Made by a program: the position numbers and the translations under genes
Part shown: positions 12,273-16,623 of the stretch, piece by piece
How the letters are laid out: each line of letters opens with the position of its first letter
How positions within the stretch are numbered: the stretch's first letter is position 1
Notes under the pieces: model-generated
The model's input: the letters and a program-made list of their open reading frames with translations, nothing else
The model's database searches: none
What the model was told of the DNA's origin: nothing
From: Candidatus Electrothrix communis
GTDB lineage: Bacteria > Desulfobacterota > Desulfobulbia > Desulfobulbales > Desulfobulbaceae
Direction of reading: 5' to 3'
Assembly: GCA_030644725.1 (NCBI GenBank)
Contig: CP130629.1
Location: 3,797,501-3,861,500, forward strand
DNA length: 64,000 bases

Positions 12273-13253
12273 TTATTCAGTCAAACTATTAAACCGTTCC
12301 TCGCAGGAAAGCACCCGCTCTTTTGCTGCTTCAGCAAGTACCTGCTTGGCTGTGGCGACATCCTTTTGGATCTGTGCAGATAGCTCCTCAATCGAGTTGA
12401 ATTTCATTTCCCCACGTAAATAACGAAGCAGGTTGAGTCGGATGGGTTGACCGTAAATGTCTTTGTTGAAATCGAAAATATGTGTTTCAACAACCAGTTC
12501 ATTCTCTCCGAAAGTGGGGTTATAACCTATATTGGTAACGCTGCCGTACATCTTGCCGCCATACAGCACCTGGGTCACGTACACCCCTTTTTTTGGGCAG
12601 AGATCCTCTTCTGAGAGCTTCAGGTTTGCGGTGGGGAAACCGATCTCTGCTCCTCCCCGCTGTTTGCCCCGTTGCACCTCGCCGTGGATATGGTAGCAGC
12701 GACCGAGTAAATTGCGCACTTCGCTCATTCGCCCTTCCATGACCAGTTCCCGTATCCTGGTGCTGGAAACCAGCATTTCTTCTTCATAATGGGCTTCCAC
12801 CACGGTGACCGGAAAGCCTTTTTGTTCTCCTTGGCCACGGAGGAAATCAATATTTCCTTCTCTACCCCGGCCAAAGGCATAATCGTACCCGACCACCAAT
12901 TCGTGGACCCCTATGGTGTCACAGAGTATATTGTTGACGAAATCAGTGGCTGTCGTCTTGGCAAATTGCTCATCAAAGGGAAGGATGACCAAAACATCAA
13001 TTCCGGCCATGCGGATCAGCTCGATTTTCTGCCGGGTCGTTGAGATAAGTCTGATTCCATCCGGTCGCAGCACTTTCAGCGGATGCGGATCAAAGGTGAT
13101 AGCCACCGAGGTGCCGCCGGTACGCTTGGCCCGAATCGCCACCTCGTGAAATAGCAATTGGTGTCCCAGATGTACTCCGTCAAAATTGCCGATAGTGACC
13201 ACTGGGCGTTTAAAGGGTCTTTTGATTTCTTGTGTATTTCTATACAACTGCAT
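12273..13253 (-). CDS. ribF: Bifunctional riboflavin kinase / FAD synthetase
   Basis: RibF phosphorylates riboflavin to FMN and adenylates FMN to FAD. The 326 residues show the N-terminal nucleotidyltransferase with VVTIGNFDGVHLGHQLL (the HxGH-type site), FDPHPLKVL and the SSTRIRELVMEGR loop (S/T-S-x-x-R). The C-terminal flavokinase follows with RGKQRGGAEIGFPTANL and the catalytic NIGYNPTFGENELVVETHIFD region. Length is the usual one for a bacterial bifunctional enzyme. It is a single gene between a transposon remnant and tRNA-Leu. I see no FMN riboswitch upstream. Confidence 0.95.
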   Translation of the reverse strand: MQLYRNTQEIKRPFKRPVVTIGNFDGVHLGHQLLFHEVAIRAKRTGGTSVAITFDPHPLKVLRPDGIRLISTTRQKIELIRMAGIDVLVILPFDEQFAKTTATDFVNNILCDTIGVHELVVGYDYAFGRGREGNIDFLRGQGEQKGFPVTVVEAHYEEEMLVSSTRIRELVMEGRMSEVRNLLGRCYHIHGEVQRGKQRGGAEIGFPTANLKLSEEDLCPKKGVYVTQVLYGGKMYGSVTNIGYNPTFGENELVVETHIFDFNKDIYGQPIRLNLLRYLRGEMKFNSIEELSAQIQKDVATAKQVLAEAAKERVLSCEERFNSLTE

Positions 13254-13488
13254 ATGTATATGTGTTGCCTCGTTTGATCATGCGGGTCATTTTTTACTTT
13301 TCCGATGCATTCGACCGTTTCGGAAAAACAAGCATATTCCTTTTGGGCAAAACAGAATATGTACTCCAACCAGACAAAACCCGCAAACAGTTCATGTGTC
13401 CTTGAGAGAGACATATTCATTTTTTTATAAACAAGGATGAAAAAACAATTGACAGCACGCCAGAAATGAGGCATATTCCTTTCGCCGT

Positions 13489-13575
13489 GCCGAAGTGGCG
13501 GAATTGGTAGACGCGCTAGGTTCAGGGTCTAGTGGGCGTACGCTCGTGGGAGTTCGACTCTCCCCTTCGGCACCA
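13489..13575 (+). tRNA. tRNA-Leu (anticodon CAG)
   Basis: The cloverleaf is complete: acceptor GCCGAAG pairs with CTTCGGC (13565-13571), D-arm region TGGCGGAATTGGTAGACGCG, anticodon loop TTCAGGG with CAG, a class II long variable arm, and T-arm GGGAGTTCGACTCTCCC. A discriminator A and an encoded CCA end follow (13572-13575). Long variable arm plus CAG anticodon fixes it as leucine. Confidence 0.97.
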
Positions 13576-13605
13576 TATTTAGTTCCATCTCGTCTTTTGA
13601 CGTTT

Positions 13606-13640
13606 AACCCGTAGCCTTCATTGGTTGCGGGTTTTTTTTT
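13606..13640 (+). terminator. Rho-independent terminator after tRNA-Leu
   Basis: A stem AACCCG / CGGGTT (13606-13611 and 13628-13633) is followed directly by a run of nine T residues. It is placed 30 bases after the CCA end of the tRNA and points the same way. Confidence 0.75.
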
Positions 13641-14196
13641 GCTTTTTCTCTCTCATTCGTATCTCTTGTGCTCCACCCTTTGAAGTAAGAAGGCTGTCTG
13701 CTGCATCGTGCGAGATTTGCTGTTGGCAAGGAGATGCGATCATCTCTCGTAAATGAACTACGCAGTGAACTCAACCTGTTGCTTGGCAGGGGCGGAGAAG
13801 GAGGCGCTTGTGGTTCTCTCGTGAAAAAGGCCCCCTTCTCTGGGGAGGAGCAGGAGTAGATTATTCCTGTCGCCTTCCTAGGCGTTTCTGAACTCACTTT
13901 GTTACGATCATTCAAAATTAATTAAAATCACAATGTAAAAAAAACTGTACACAGGGTGTAGAAAACTGTACAGTGTTAGCGGATACAGGGTGAATCTGTA
14001 TTCATTCAGGGATGCAACAAGAAATACCTTATGCCGGGGCAGACACGCACCTGAAAAGGGATTTTATTTTTTGAAGGATTCATAATAGGTCGCCAGCTTA
14101 ATTTTTTTGTCTTCTGCCCCTAGGATCTGATGATGGTTGCGTCGTTGAGTGGCAGGTTCAATATAATGTAATTACTGTGTAAAGATGGGATGTATT
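13641..14196. other. Long intergenic stretch without a supported gene
   Basis: I find no gene on either strand. A minus-strand frame around 13604-13915 has the low-complexity Ser/Pro/Arg content of a chance frame. At 13945-13975 there is a repeated phrase (CTGTACA ... GGGTGTAG ... CTGTACAG) that forms an imperfect inverted repeat and could be a protein binding site. The last 100 bases lead into the first rhodanese gene and should hold its promoter, but I cannot pick -35 and -10 boxes with confidence. Confidence 0.5.
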
Positions 14197-14592
14197 ATGA
14201 GGGAAATATTCGGGCTGATCTTTGTCTATCTTCTTCTCGGTGCGACGTCACTGCTTGCTGCTGATGAGGTTCAATTTATGAGCGCTGAAGAGTTGAAGGC
14301 AAATCTCAATGCCGAAAACATATCTATTTTGGATGCTCGATCTGAAAGAGGCTGGAGTAACAGCGACGTTAAAATCCCCGGTGCCATACGGGCAACATGG
14401 GATAATTTTGATGAATGGTCTGTTTCTTTGCCAAAGGATAATACATTGGTCTTCTATTGCTCATGAGCGAACGAAAGAAGCAGTGCCAGGTTGGCACGCA
14501 GGTTCGTATCAAAAAGTTTTAGCGATGTCTACGTTCTTGAAGGGGGCTGGCGAAAATGGAGAGTCGACGATCTTCCGGTAGAAAAGAAGTAA
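14197..14592 (+). CDS. Secreted rhodanese-like protein with in-frame TGA, candidate selenoprotein
   Basis: From ATG 14197 the frame gives a signal peptide (MREIFGLIFVYLLLGATSLLA), a rhodanese fold start (ISILDARSERGW, VKIPGAI), then LVFYCS and a TGA at 14464-14466. Beyond the TGA the same frame continues with ANERSSARLARRF ... VYVLEGGWRKW and stops at TAA 14590. The total is 131 residues, against 132 in the paralogue directly downstream. The TGA (residue 90) aligns with Cys91 of the paralogue's YCAC loop, so C89-x0-U90 here would match C89-A-C91 there. A hairpin with G-G in the loop sits 23-24 bases after the TGA. Reading TGA as selenocysteine explains length, alignment and hairpin. The alternative is a recent nonsense mutation in a duplicate gene. 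An earlier in-frame ATG at 14185 would add four residues before the signal peptide. Confidence 0.7.
14464..14499 (+). promoter_or_regulatory. Candidate bacterial SECIS element
   Basis: After TGA 14464-14466 a stem GTGCC (14483-14487) pairs with GGCAC (14493-14497), closing the five-base loop AGGTT. The stem extends by two further pairs (GC 14480-14481 with GC 14498-14499) across a bulged A. Bacterial SECIS hairpins lie just behind the UGA with G residues in the apical loop at roughly 16-37 nt (E. coli fdhF has GGTCT); here the loop GG is at 23-24 nt. The downstream Cys paralogue has no such hairpin at the same place. Confidence 0.6.
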
Positions 14593-14702
14593 GTTTTCCT
14601 GCTTGCAGAGGTTGGCGTAATCCTGTGCCCCGTTGATGAGTTGAGACAGGCAGGAAAACAATAAAAAGGATCAGTAACTATTTTACTAAAGGAGAAAATG
14701 TT

Positions 14703-15101
14703 ATGAAAAACTTTCTACTGCTCGTTGTCGCGGTTTTATTGGGGATAGGAGGTGCTACTCAGGCATTTTCCGCTGAGATCCAAACCATAAGCAAAGAAGA
14801 GTTGAAATCCAAGCTTGGTTCTTATGAGTACACTGTTTTGGATGTGCGTAGCGACCATCATTGGAGTGCCAGTGAAAACAAAATTCCTGGAGCGATCCGT
14901 CTGTCAGGTGATAAACTGGACGTTTGGGCAGAAAATTTCCATAAAAATACACCGCTGGTCTTGTACTGTGCTTGTGAAGGCCTAGGGAGTAGCGGCAGAT
15001 TGGTCCGTCAGCTTATGGAGAAGGGGTTTACTCATGTCTATGCGCTCAGTGGCGGCTGGACCGAGTGGCTCATGAACAGCTACCCGGTTACCCACAAATA
15101 A
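14703..15101 (+). CDS. Secreted rhodanese-like protein (Cys form)
   Basis: 132 residues with a strong ribosome site (AAAGGAG, then ATG 14703). A signal peptide (MKNFLLLVVAVLLGIGGATQAFS) exports it to the periplasm. The single rhodanese domain has VLDVRSDHHW, KIPGAIRL and the active-site loop LYCACEGLGSSGR, followed by VYALSGGWTEWL. The CxC in the loop replaces the usual single cysteine and suggests a redox or persulfide-relay role, which is an inference. It is the tandem paralogue of the TGA-containing gene 110 bases upstream; the two share residues throughout, so they arose by duplication and may act together in periplasmic sulfur handling. The gene is followed by a 43-base gap and a converging gene. 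Confidence 0.9.
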   Translation: MKNFLLLVVAVLLGIGGATQAFSAEIQTISKEELKSKLGSYEYTVLDVRSDHHWSASENKIPGAIRLSGDKLDVWAENFHKNTPLVLYCACEGLGSSGRLVRQLMEKGFTHVYALSGGWTEWLMNSYPVTHK

Positions 15102-15144
15102 AACGAATAATAGCACGTTAAACCGGTCGCCCGGGTATCCGGCA

Positions 15145-16623
15145 TTATTTCAGCGGGACCAATTTGTCCTTGGCTAAACGGCCTCCCTGTTCTTGAGCAG
15201 CTTCCCGATAGCAGATCCGGACAGTATTGCCGGATTTCGTCTCCAATCGACTATAGGGTAAACGTACTGTCACTGTATCCCCAGATACAGTGACAGCTTT
15301 TTTATCCAGCGTTCCAAAAGATCGTCTTTCATTCCCATCAATTTGATAAAGACTTACTTCAGCCCCTCCTGAAACACCCCTTGCGTTCCCCTCTTGCTGG
15401 GCGACAAGTTGTACTTGTACATTCAGGTCATATCCATCCCTTTCTTGCTGCTGTCTAAAGGGGGTGCCGCCCGTTGCTCTATTCGTGTCGGTATCCAGGT
15501 AAAAGCTGATCAACGGATCAAAATCTCCTGCCTTAACAGCGAGAAAATAGGCGGAAAGGGGACGGGTCATGGTGATCGTAAGTAGAAGCCCGCCTTGATC
15601 TCCTTTTGCCGAGACCTCTTTTATATCCAGAAAGGGGTTATGGGTATCTCCAATCGGGTCACGCCAGATGAGGAAACCATCCACAGAAGGAAGTTGGCGA
15701 ACAATCGGAACCTTTATATCTTTCGCGTCGATGGAATTCCGTGCGTCATTCTGCGGCTGGGGAAAGATGTCTGTGCCAAGGGTACGATTGACCTCTGTCT
15801 GCACCTGCTTGATGATTTCGGGAAGTTGTGGGCCAAGGGCAACAATGGAGCCTATAAAGGCAAGCAAAGGGAGTAAAAAGCCGAACACGCCCAGGAGAAC
15901 CCAGAACCATCCTGAGCTGGAGGAGGGATCAACTTCTCCAGAGCACTCTTTGAGATCATGGTAAACAGTCACCGTGTAGAGCATCAGAAATGGGGCGAAA
16001 AGCAAGGAAAGGATCGGGCCGACAGGAAGAGGAGCCAGGCCGAGCAAGATGGAAAGGACCCAGACCAGCAGGAGCTTGAACAGGGTGTTCCACCAATGTC
16101 CTCGTATGTAGAGGCGGCTGGCAAGCAGTGCATCAATGCCTGTTCGTTCTTCTTCAACCATGATGAAAAAACAAAGAGACATGGACAGGGCCAGTATCAG
16201 ACCTGGGATAATAAAAAAAACAGATCCAGTTATGACAATGCCTACATAAAGACTACTGATCCAGAGCAGTGGAAAAATATATTTCCAGCTGGTTATGAGG
16301 TTTCCCATAACGCTACGTTCTTGCTGAACAGTTGCGGTAAGAACAGCAGTATGACACCAGGTTATCAGCAGGCTGGCAACGAAAAGCAAGAGGATTCCTG
16401 TGCCGATAACTAACGGATTGAGCAGGATTTTCTGAGGGTCACCCGTAAAATAAGGTTGGCCTCCCAAGGCAAAAAATGCTGCTGTGCCTCCACCGATGAG
16501 GAGCATAATGCTCACAAAGAGAGATACGAGGGAGACAAGCCCAATAGAAATGACGCTGCTTTTGTACAAAGTCCATGTTTCGGAAAAAATCTCGTATGTA
16601 TTTTTCAGTTGATCTTTTTCCAT
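15145..16623 (-). CDS. Multi-pass membrane protein with C-terminal extracytoplasmic beta domain (492 aa)
   Basis: The first 270 residues hold about six membrane segments (VISIGLVSLVSLFVSIMLLIG, LVIGTGILLLFVASLLITW, LLWISSLYVGIVITGSVFFI and others) with the layout of the YciC/glycerophosphodiesterase membrane-domain group. From about residue 300 a soluble beta-rich domain follows (DGFLIWRDPIGDTHNPFLDI ... ISFYLDTDTNRATGGTPF), resembling carbohydrate-binding-type or DOMON-like folds, ending in KLVPLK. I do not recognise the fusion as a named family. It is downstream of yggU by 71 bases on the same strand. The function is unknown; a sensor or transporter role is only a guess. Confidence 0.8.
   Translation of the reverse strand: MEKDQLKNTYEIFSETWTLYKSSVISIGLVSLVSLFVSIMLLIGGGTAAFFALGGQPYFTGDPQKILLNPLVIGTGILLLFVASLLITWCHTAVLTATVQQERSVMGNLITSWKYIFPLLWISSLYVGIVITGSVFFIIPGLILALSMSLCFFIMVEEERTGIDALLASRLYIRGHWWNTLFKLLLVWVLSILLGLAPLPVGPILSLLFAPFLMLYTVTVYHDLKECSGEVDPSSSSGWFWVLLGVFGFLLPLLAFIGSIVALGPQLPEIIKQVQTEVNRTLGTDIFPQPQNDARNSIDAKDIKVPIVRQLPSVDGFLIWRDPIGDTHNPFLDIKEVSAKGDQGGLLLTITMTRPLSAYFLAVKAGDFDPLISFYLDTDTNRATGGTPFRQQQERDGYDLNVQVQLVAQQEGNARGVSGGAEVSLYQIDGNERRSFGTLDKKAVTVSGDTVTVRLPYSRLETKSGNTVRICYREAAQEQGGRLAKDKLVPLK

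What the first reader, a model, noticed from the sequence alone, without database searches (positions are those of the whole stretch)
14197..14592. Candidate new selenoprotein: secreted rhodanese with Sec in a C-U active-site loop, beside its Cys paralogue
Seen: the TGA at 14464-14466 interrupts a frame that otherwise continues to TAA 14590 with rhodanese sequence (ANERSSARLARRF, VYVLEGGWRKW). Read through, the product is 131 residues, the paralogue 132, and the TGA lines up with Cys91 in YCAC of the paralogue. A hairpin (stem GTGCC/GGCAC plus two pairs, loop AGGTT) lies 23-24 nt after the TGA. Known: bacterial Sec insertion needs an adjacent hairpin with a G-containing loop at about this distance, and Cys/Sec pairs are the classic mark of selenoproteins. 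Inferred: the tandem pair is a Sec and a Cys version of the same periplasmic sulfurtransferase.
Basis: partly seen in the sequence, partly recalled or inferred. Interest (0 to 1): 0.85.

Follow-up and report, generated by a model that had tools for sequence, protein, structure and literature searches.

The report
Known rhodanese selenoprotein in cable bacterium
A gene that looks broken by a stop codon almost certainly encodes a small exported sulfur-handling protein with selenocysteine in its active site; it belongs to an already catalogued selenoprotein family, and the less expected point is that in some close relatives this copy has decayed while its cysteine-containing neighbour stays intact.

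Summary
TGA 14464-14466 interrupts a frame that reads on to TAA 14590-14592 (131 aa, Sec90). It is followed by a bacterial SECIS-type hairpin (14483-14497) and, 110 nt after the TAA, by a Cys paralogue (14703-15101, Cys91). The genome has selA, selB, tRNA-Sec and selD. Read through, the protein scores 147 bits against a cut-off of 115 for NCBIfam NF041203, 'rhodanese-related (seleno)protein', listed in a 2026 review as 'form 3, CxU'. So it is a selenoprotein gene by sequence evidence, but not a new family. Of 86 over-cut-off members from 61 of 395 genomes of the phylum, 75 have TGA at this codon. All 5 hairpin pairs form in 73 of those 75, with compensatory changes, and in 1 of 11 without the TGA. 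The window is inferred to be from a Candidatus Electrothrix (cable bacterium). Less ordinary: in 7 genomes of the genus with the tandem locus the Cys gene is intact in 7, the Sec gene in 4; 11 of 86 members carry TGA at both active-site positions (UxU); 4 of 86 run on into a multihaem stretch. The catalytic role is inferred.

The parts
14197..14592 (+). Selenoprotein gene of family NF041203 (rhodanese_LYCAU), 131 aa when TGA is read as Sec
   Evidence: (147 bits, cut-off 115)
14197..14262 (+). Probable N-terminal signal peptide, residues 1-22 (read by eye, no predictor run)
   Evidence: sequence MREIFGLIFVYLLLGATSLLAA; helix 3-20 in the model, at low confidence
14458..14460 (+). TGC codon of Cys88, the expected rhodanese catalytic cysteine (TGA in the UxU relatives)
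14464..14466 (+). In-frame TGA, Sec90
   Evidence: TGA at this codon in 75 of 86 over-cut-off members, this gene included, and in 79 of 80 named loci
14483..14497 (+). Bacterial SECIS-type hairpin (5-6 pairs, loop with G at position 2); two further pairs 14480-14481 with 14498-14499 around a bulged A
14703..15101 (+). Cys paralogue, 132 aa, same family
   Evidence: 139 bits, cut-off 115
14973..14975 (+). TGT codon of Cys91, aligned with Sec90
14992..15006 (+). Place in the Cys gene that corresponds to the SECIS hairpin; only 3 of 5 pairs form
   Evidence: (row L026)

Best explanation
The gene is a member of the known NF041203 selenoprotein family in a Candidatus Electrothrix. UGA90 is decoded as selenocysteine by SelB and tRNA-Sec with the hairpin that starts 16 nt downstream (well supported by comparison, not shown by experiment). 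The product is a single-domain rhodanese (fold supported by a model), probably exported (inferred from the N-terminus). In its active-site loop Cys88 is the probable sulfane-sulfur acceptor and Sec90, two residues on, a redox partner that can close a selenenyl-sulfide with Cys88 or release sulfur or electrons from a Cys88 persulfide (inferred). Four relatives in which the same domain runs on into a multihaem stretch suggest that electrons from this chemistry can go to c-type haems (inferred; no such fusion here). The neighbouring Cys gene is a probably derived relative without the hairpin that is retained where the Sec copy decays.
For: Over-cut-off match to NF041203. selB 374 bits, selA 629, selD 343, tRNA-Sec 74.8 bits, each over its cut-off in the genome; ARAGORN also calls tRNA-SeC with anticodon tca. 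TGA at this codon in 75 of 86 members over cut-off and in 79 of 80 named loci, which include Nitrospirota and Methylomirabilota by record title. Hairpin: all 5 pairs in 73 of 75, 4 pairs in the other 2; G in the first two loop positions in 75 of 75; second pair T-A in 48 and C-G in 24 (2 T-G, 1 C-A), Fisher p 3e-16, or 3e-13 with one row for each of 60 genomes. Pairing falls from 99% to 10-63% when the whole stem is slid by 1-3 nt and to 22-63% when only the 3' partner is slid. The hairpin satisfies the bSECIS rules quoted in PMC13188914: loop 3-9 nt, stem 4-16 pairs, G in the first two loop positions, spacing 16-37 nt, energy at or below -7.5 kcal/mol (45-nt stretch -15.5). Model mean pLDDT 88.8 with position 90 in the loop between strand 83-87 and helix 94-105; the four best PDB matches are rhodanese-domain entries. 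Multihaem continuations.
Against: No protein or selenium-labelling data. The hairpin of this one gene alone has z only -1.96. Fisher counts treat related sequences as independent. The usual rhodanese loop CRxGx[RT] (recalled) is not kept, so sulfurtransferase activity is uncertain. Decayed Sec copies in three genomes of the genus show that this copy is dispensable there. The AF2 model was made with Cys in place of Sec. One CxS member (L086) keeps all 5 hairpin pairs without a TGA.
Confidence: 0.92

Rival explanations
1. Pseudogene: the TGA is a nonsense mutation in a Cys-type rhodanese gene.
For: Sec copies at this very locus are decayed in three genomes of the genus.
Against: The same TGA stands in 75 of 86 family members; the frame after it is conserved with dN/dS about 0.14 against Ca. 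E. aarhusensis; the hairpin is conserved and covaries.
Confidence: 0.02
2. The TGA is a real stop and the 89-residue N-terminal part is the working product.
For: Translation termination is the default reading of TGA.
Against: The truncated product would lack the helix after the active-site loop (94-105) and all that follows, and it does not explain the conservation of the 41 codons after the TGA.
Confidence: 0.02
3. A new selenoprotein family.
For: No paper in the library pairs 'cable bacteria' with 'selenoprotein' or 'Electrothrix' with 'selenocysteine' (0 papers each).
Against: NF041203 covers it over the curated cut-off, and the CxU rhodanese is listed in PMC9312934 and PMC13188914; the latter cites Zhang and Gladyshev 2005 for it.
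Confidence: 0.02
4. A selenoprotein, but the work is thiol or persulfide redox chemistry rather than sulfur transfer: Cys88-Sec90 acts as a selenenyl-sulfide switch.
For: C-x-U, U-x-U and C-x-C forms all occur; continuation into multihaem stretches.
Against: The rhodanese fold and a Cys at the end of the expected strand remain.
Confidence: 0.4

Closest known systems
NCBIfam NF041203 rhodanese_LYCAU, 'rhodanese-related (seleno)protein' = 'Rhodanese-like form 3, CxU' of PMC13188914 (example TKB26178.1)
   Same: Nearly whole-length match over the curated cut-off (residues 11-131, profile 6-126 of 126); C-x-U loop; Sec at the same position
   Different: CSU-ANER instead of the commoner CAU-PNE; stands beside a Cys paralogue, not beside the membrane-type protein found upstream of 32 of 80 named relatives
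Rhodanese/DsbD fusion-like selenoprotein TsoB (NF045694)
   Same: Rhodanese-domain selenoprotein
   Different: 572-position fusion profile; only 24 bits here against a cut-off of 805
Thiosulfate sulfurtransferase GlpE / single-domain rhodaneses (PF00581)
   Same: Rhodanese fold and a Cys at the end of the same strand
   Different: Different active-site loop with Sec two residues after the Cys; probably exported, whereas GlpE is cytosolic (recalled)

Membership tests
NF041203 rhodanese-related (seleno)protein | Score over the curated cut-off of 115 bits | tested here: met
   147 bits; 139.3 bits on the genome
NF041203 rhodanese-related (seleno)protein | C-x-U (or Cys form) in the YCxU loop | tested here: met
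   FYCSU; TGA at this codon in 75 of 86 members
Bacterial selenoprotein gene | selA, selB, selC and selD in the genome | tested here: met
Bacterial selenoprotein gene | bSECIS hairpin with G in the first two loop positions, 16-37 nt after the UGA | tested here: met
   rules as quoted in PMC13188914
Bacterial selenoprotein gene | Cys homologues at the Sec position | tested here: met
   paralogue in the window and 2 further CxC members among 86
Bacterial selenoprotein gene | Selenium in the protein | not testable with these tools
   needs labelling or mass spectrometry
Rhodanese (PF00581) | Rhodanese domain and fold | tested here: met
   54.9 bits, cut-off 22.2; fold matches
Rhodanese sulfurtransferase | Canonical active-site loop CRxGx[RT] (recalled) | tested here: not met
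   loop is C-S-U-A-N-E-R; in many relatives C-x-U-P-N-E-x-T
Rhodanese sulfurtransferase | Sulfur transfer activity | not testable with these tools
   needs an enzyme assay

The most novel reading that the evidence does not exclude
In cable bacteria a selenoprotein is being handed over to a neighbouring cysteine paralogue: the tandem Sec gene is being lost lineage by lineage while the Cys gene, itself nested among Sec forms, takes over. In the wider family the active-site pair switches repeatedly between C-x-U, U-x-U, C-x-C and C-x-S, one hairpin in U-x-U genes serving two UGA codons one codon apart, with some members wired directly to multihaem cytochromes.
Probability: 0.45. Interest if true: 0.5.

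Novelty: new member of a known kind. Interest (0 to 1): 0.33.

Why it matters
It settles a gene that a reading with TGA as stop would cut at residue 89, and adds selenium use to the sulfur chemistry of cable bacteria. The tandem locus (Sec copy intact in 4 and decayed in 3 of 7 genomes) is a compact natural case for how a selenoprotein may be replaced by a cysteine form, and the UxU and multihaem-fused relatives give testable hints about what this family does.

Tried and rejected
Rejected: nonsense-mutation pseudogene and genuine stop (see rivals); new family (PMC13188914). The simple idea that the tandem pair is a recent Sec/Cys duplication is not shown: the proteins are 40% identical, the tree places them apart without starred support, and holding them together is not rejected (p 0.41). 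A search of the window's own genome for the membrane-type protein found upstream of relatives gave nothing at E up to 0.001, with one distant query and no positive control, so this shows little. Plasmid tblastn gave 10 records, all under 60% identity; of the 5 listed, 2 are annotated DedA/GlpE fusions and 3 have no annotation. The terminator-like minus-strand hit at 14483-14497 is the SECIS hairpin itself. Rfam on 13000-16000 at E up to 1 gave only a tRNA and a sub-threshold match. Literature: search listings, and passages of PMC9312934, PMC13188914, PMC1794560, PMC2398784 and PMC1088965; PMC12013277 was word-searched with no hit for rhodanese, UxU or Electrothrix. No paper was read whole.

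Hand choices in counts: L096 was printed as '*xA'; read by eye it is C-x-S with a TAA in the preceding codon, so CxS is 7 of 86. The hairpin register was set by hand, one codon earlier for L098 and one later for L096. L178 has an extra in-frame TAA and was left out of alignment A2; L042 shows the same and is the same contig by length. Alignment A2 used 35 of the 80 named loci, the tree 62 rows chosen by hand.

Full report
What is there. The window holds an ORF at 14197-14592 with one in-frame TGA (14464-14466) and, 110 nt after its TAA, a second ORF at 14703-15101. Read through, the first product has 131 residues with U90; the second has 132 with Cys91 at the aligned place. Both are rhodaneses by Pfam (54.9 and 55.1 bits, cut-off 22.2) and both exceed the cut-off of NCBIfam NF041203, 'rhodanese-related (seleno)protein' (147 and 139 bits against 115).

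Machinery. The window lies in a single contig of 4,845,585 bases. Over cut-off in it: selB (374 bits), selA (629 bits), selD (343 bits, itself with one TGA) and tRNA-Sec (74.8 bits; ARAGORN anticodon tca). Three NF041203 members are over cut-off in the genome: 979088-979459 (one TGA), the finding, and the Cys paralogue.

Organism. The closest named relative is Candidatus Electrothrix aarhusensis (86% identity, L123). Genome G398, which the tool lists as the same genus as the window's genome, has a contig of the same length (57,630) with a gene at the same 86% identity. So the window is from a Candidatus Electrothrix, a cable bacterium (inference).

The codon across the family. NF041203 was searched in 395 genomes of the phylum: 61 have an over-cut-off match (at most 10 candidates were scored in each genome). 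I examined all 86 over-cut-off matches listed, three of them from the window's own genome. TGA stands at the Sec position in 75 of 86: 64 CxU and 11 UxU. The rest are 3 CxC, 7 CxS (one of them with a TAA in the preceding codon) and 1 SxS (with the correction given under Tried and rejected). Of the 80 best named loci of another collection, 76 are CxU, 3 UxU and 1 CxC; by title they include Nitrospirota and Methylomirabilota.

The hairpin. A 5-pair stem begins 16 nt after the TGA. All 5 pairs form in 73 of 75 TGA-bearing members and 4 in the other 2 (L058, L098); all 11 UxU members have 5. In the 11 without TGA, 5 pairs form in 1 (L086, CxS), 4 in 1 and 1-3 in 9. The second pair is T-A in 48, C-G in 24, T-G in 2 and C-A in 1. 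In this gene its two bases are third positions of a Ser and an Ala codon, so protein conservation alone does not explain the coupling. Fisher p is 3e-16, or 3e-13 with one row for each of 60 genomes; both ignore relatedness. Sliding the whole stem by 1-3 nt drops pairing from 99% to 10-63%, and sliding only the 3' partner to 22-63%. In the named set 77 of 79 have all 5 pairs. The element meets the published bSECIS rules (passage of PMC13188914). In this gene alone the fold is only modestly better than shuffles (z -1.96).

Selection on the read-through part. Against Ca. E. aarhusensis, 41 codons after the TGA show 5 synonymous and 3 nonsynonymous codon differences (dN 0.031, dS 0.226), and 89 codons before it 13 and 14 (dN 0.075, dS 0.317). 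Between 11 nt before and 22 nt after the first base of the TGA there is no difference.

Fold and loop. An AlphaFold2 model from 37 sequences has mean pLDDT 88.8 and pTM 0.77. Its four best PDB matches are rhodanese-domain entries (best E 9.5e-8, TM-score by query 0.68). Cys88 and position 90 lie in the loop between strand 83-87 and helix 94-105, where rhodaneses carry the catalytic Cys (recalled). The canonical loop CRxGx[RT] (recalled) is not present. The N-terminus looks like a signal peptide by eye; no predictor was run.

What it probably does. Cys88 as sulfur acceptor and Sec90 as redox partner is inference. Supporting hints: the pair varies as C-x-U, U-x-U and C-x-C. Four of the 86 members (L075, L083, L085, L113) run on for about 400 residues into a stretch with eight CxxCH motifs, counted by eye in L075. 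The two of these scanned (the L085 and L113 places) match PF13447 multi-haem cytochrome at 82 and 84 bits, cut-off 21.9. In 32 of 80 named loci a membrane-type protein of 403-519 aa lies upstream on the same strand, within 200 nt in 31 of them; 5 of the 80 loci hold under 1200 nt upstream. Three or four examples were tested: no Pfam match up to E 1 except one chance-level hit, and one weak match to an amino acid antiporter family in one of three. Neither feature is at the window locus.

The tandem locus in the genus. Of eight genomes of the genus searched, the window's own included, seven have the tandem locus; the eighth (G400, 69% complete) has no match. The Cys gene has no stop inside and matches from residue 5-13 to 129-130 of the query in 7 of 7. 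The Sec gene is intact in 4 (the window, G398, G397, G396). In G399 and G401 the 5' half is not recognisable, and G401 has one extra base further on; in G395 only a 3' remnant, from about the hairpin on, remains. A separate Sec member elsewhere in the genome (45-48% identical to the query, 40% in G395) is present in the window's genome and in G395, G397, G398, G399 and G401, and not seen in G396. The Cys gene is nested among Sec forms in the tree, which suggests that it derives from a Sec form; the root is arbitrary and support is moderate. Whether it arose by duplication of its neighbour is open (AU p 0.41). That the Cys gene takes over the work of the Sec gene is inference.

Known or new. 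[quoted passage not shown] the 2005 paper itself was not seen). So this is a new member of a known family. Not found in the open library: a paper with 'cable bacteria' and 'selenoprotein' or with 'Electrothrix' and 'selenocysteine'. For a UxU rhodanese, one search gave one paper, on neurodegeneration by title, not opened, and one search gave five listings, of which I saw passages only of PMC13188914, where 'UxU' does not occur. Absence there is weak, because most subscription journals are missing.

Noticed in passing
L041, L047, L051, L062, L071, L080, L081, L083, L085, L092, L113: Eleven of 86 family members have TGA at both active-site positions (UxU), so the expected catalytic Cys is also a TGA; the hairpin keeps its place, 27 nt from the first TGA to the loop. 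The review table gives CxU with one Sec for this family.
   Followed up: partly
L075, L083, L085, L113: The rhodanese domain runs on into about 400 residues with many CxxCH haem motifs (multihaem cytochrome by Pfam in the two scanned).
   Followed up: partly
e.g. L124:4747-5985, L126:4715-5992: A membrane-type protein of 403-519 aa lies upstream of the rhodanese gene in 32 of 80 named loci; the examples tested have no Pfam family.
   Followed up: partly
L229, L230, L231: The tandem Sec gene is decayed in three genomes of the genus while the Cys gene is intact.
   Followed up: yes
L030, genome position 609777-610043: Another rhodanese domain in the same genome has an in-frame TGA at the catalytic position (VVYUAIGGRS) and continues into a second, perhaps rubrerythrin-like, domain (by eye).
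   Followed up: no
L018, genome position 1791388-1792317: selD of this genome carries an in-frame TGA, as known for Sec-containing SelD (recalled).
   Followed up: no
L099, L104, L107, L111, L112: A branch of paralogues in one family of the phylum has Ser instead of Sec (CxS, SxS) and lacks the hairpin (1-3 of 5 pairs).
   Followed up: no
window 13489-13572: A tRNA gene (50.4 bits to RF00005) lies upstream of the tandem pair.
   Followed up: no
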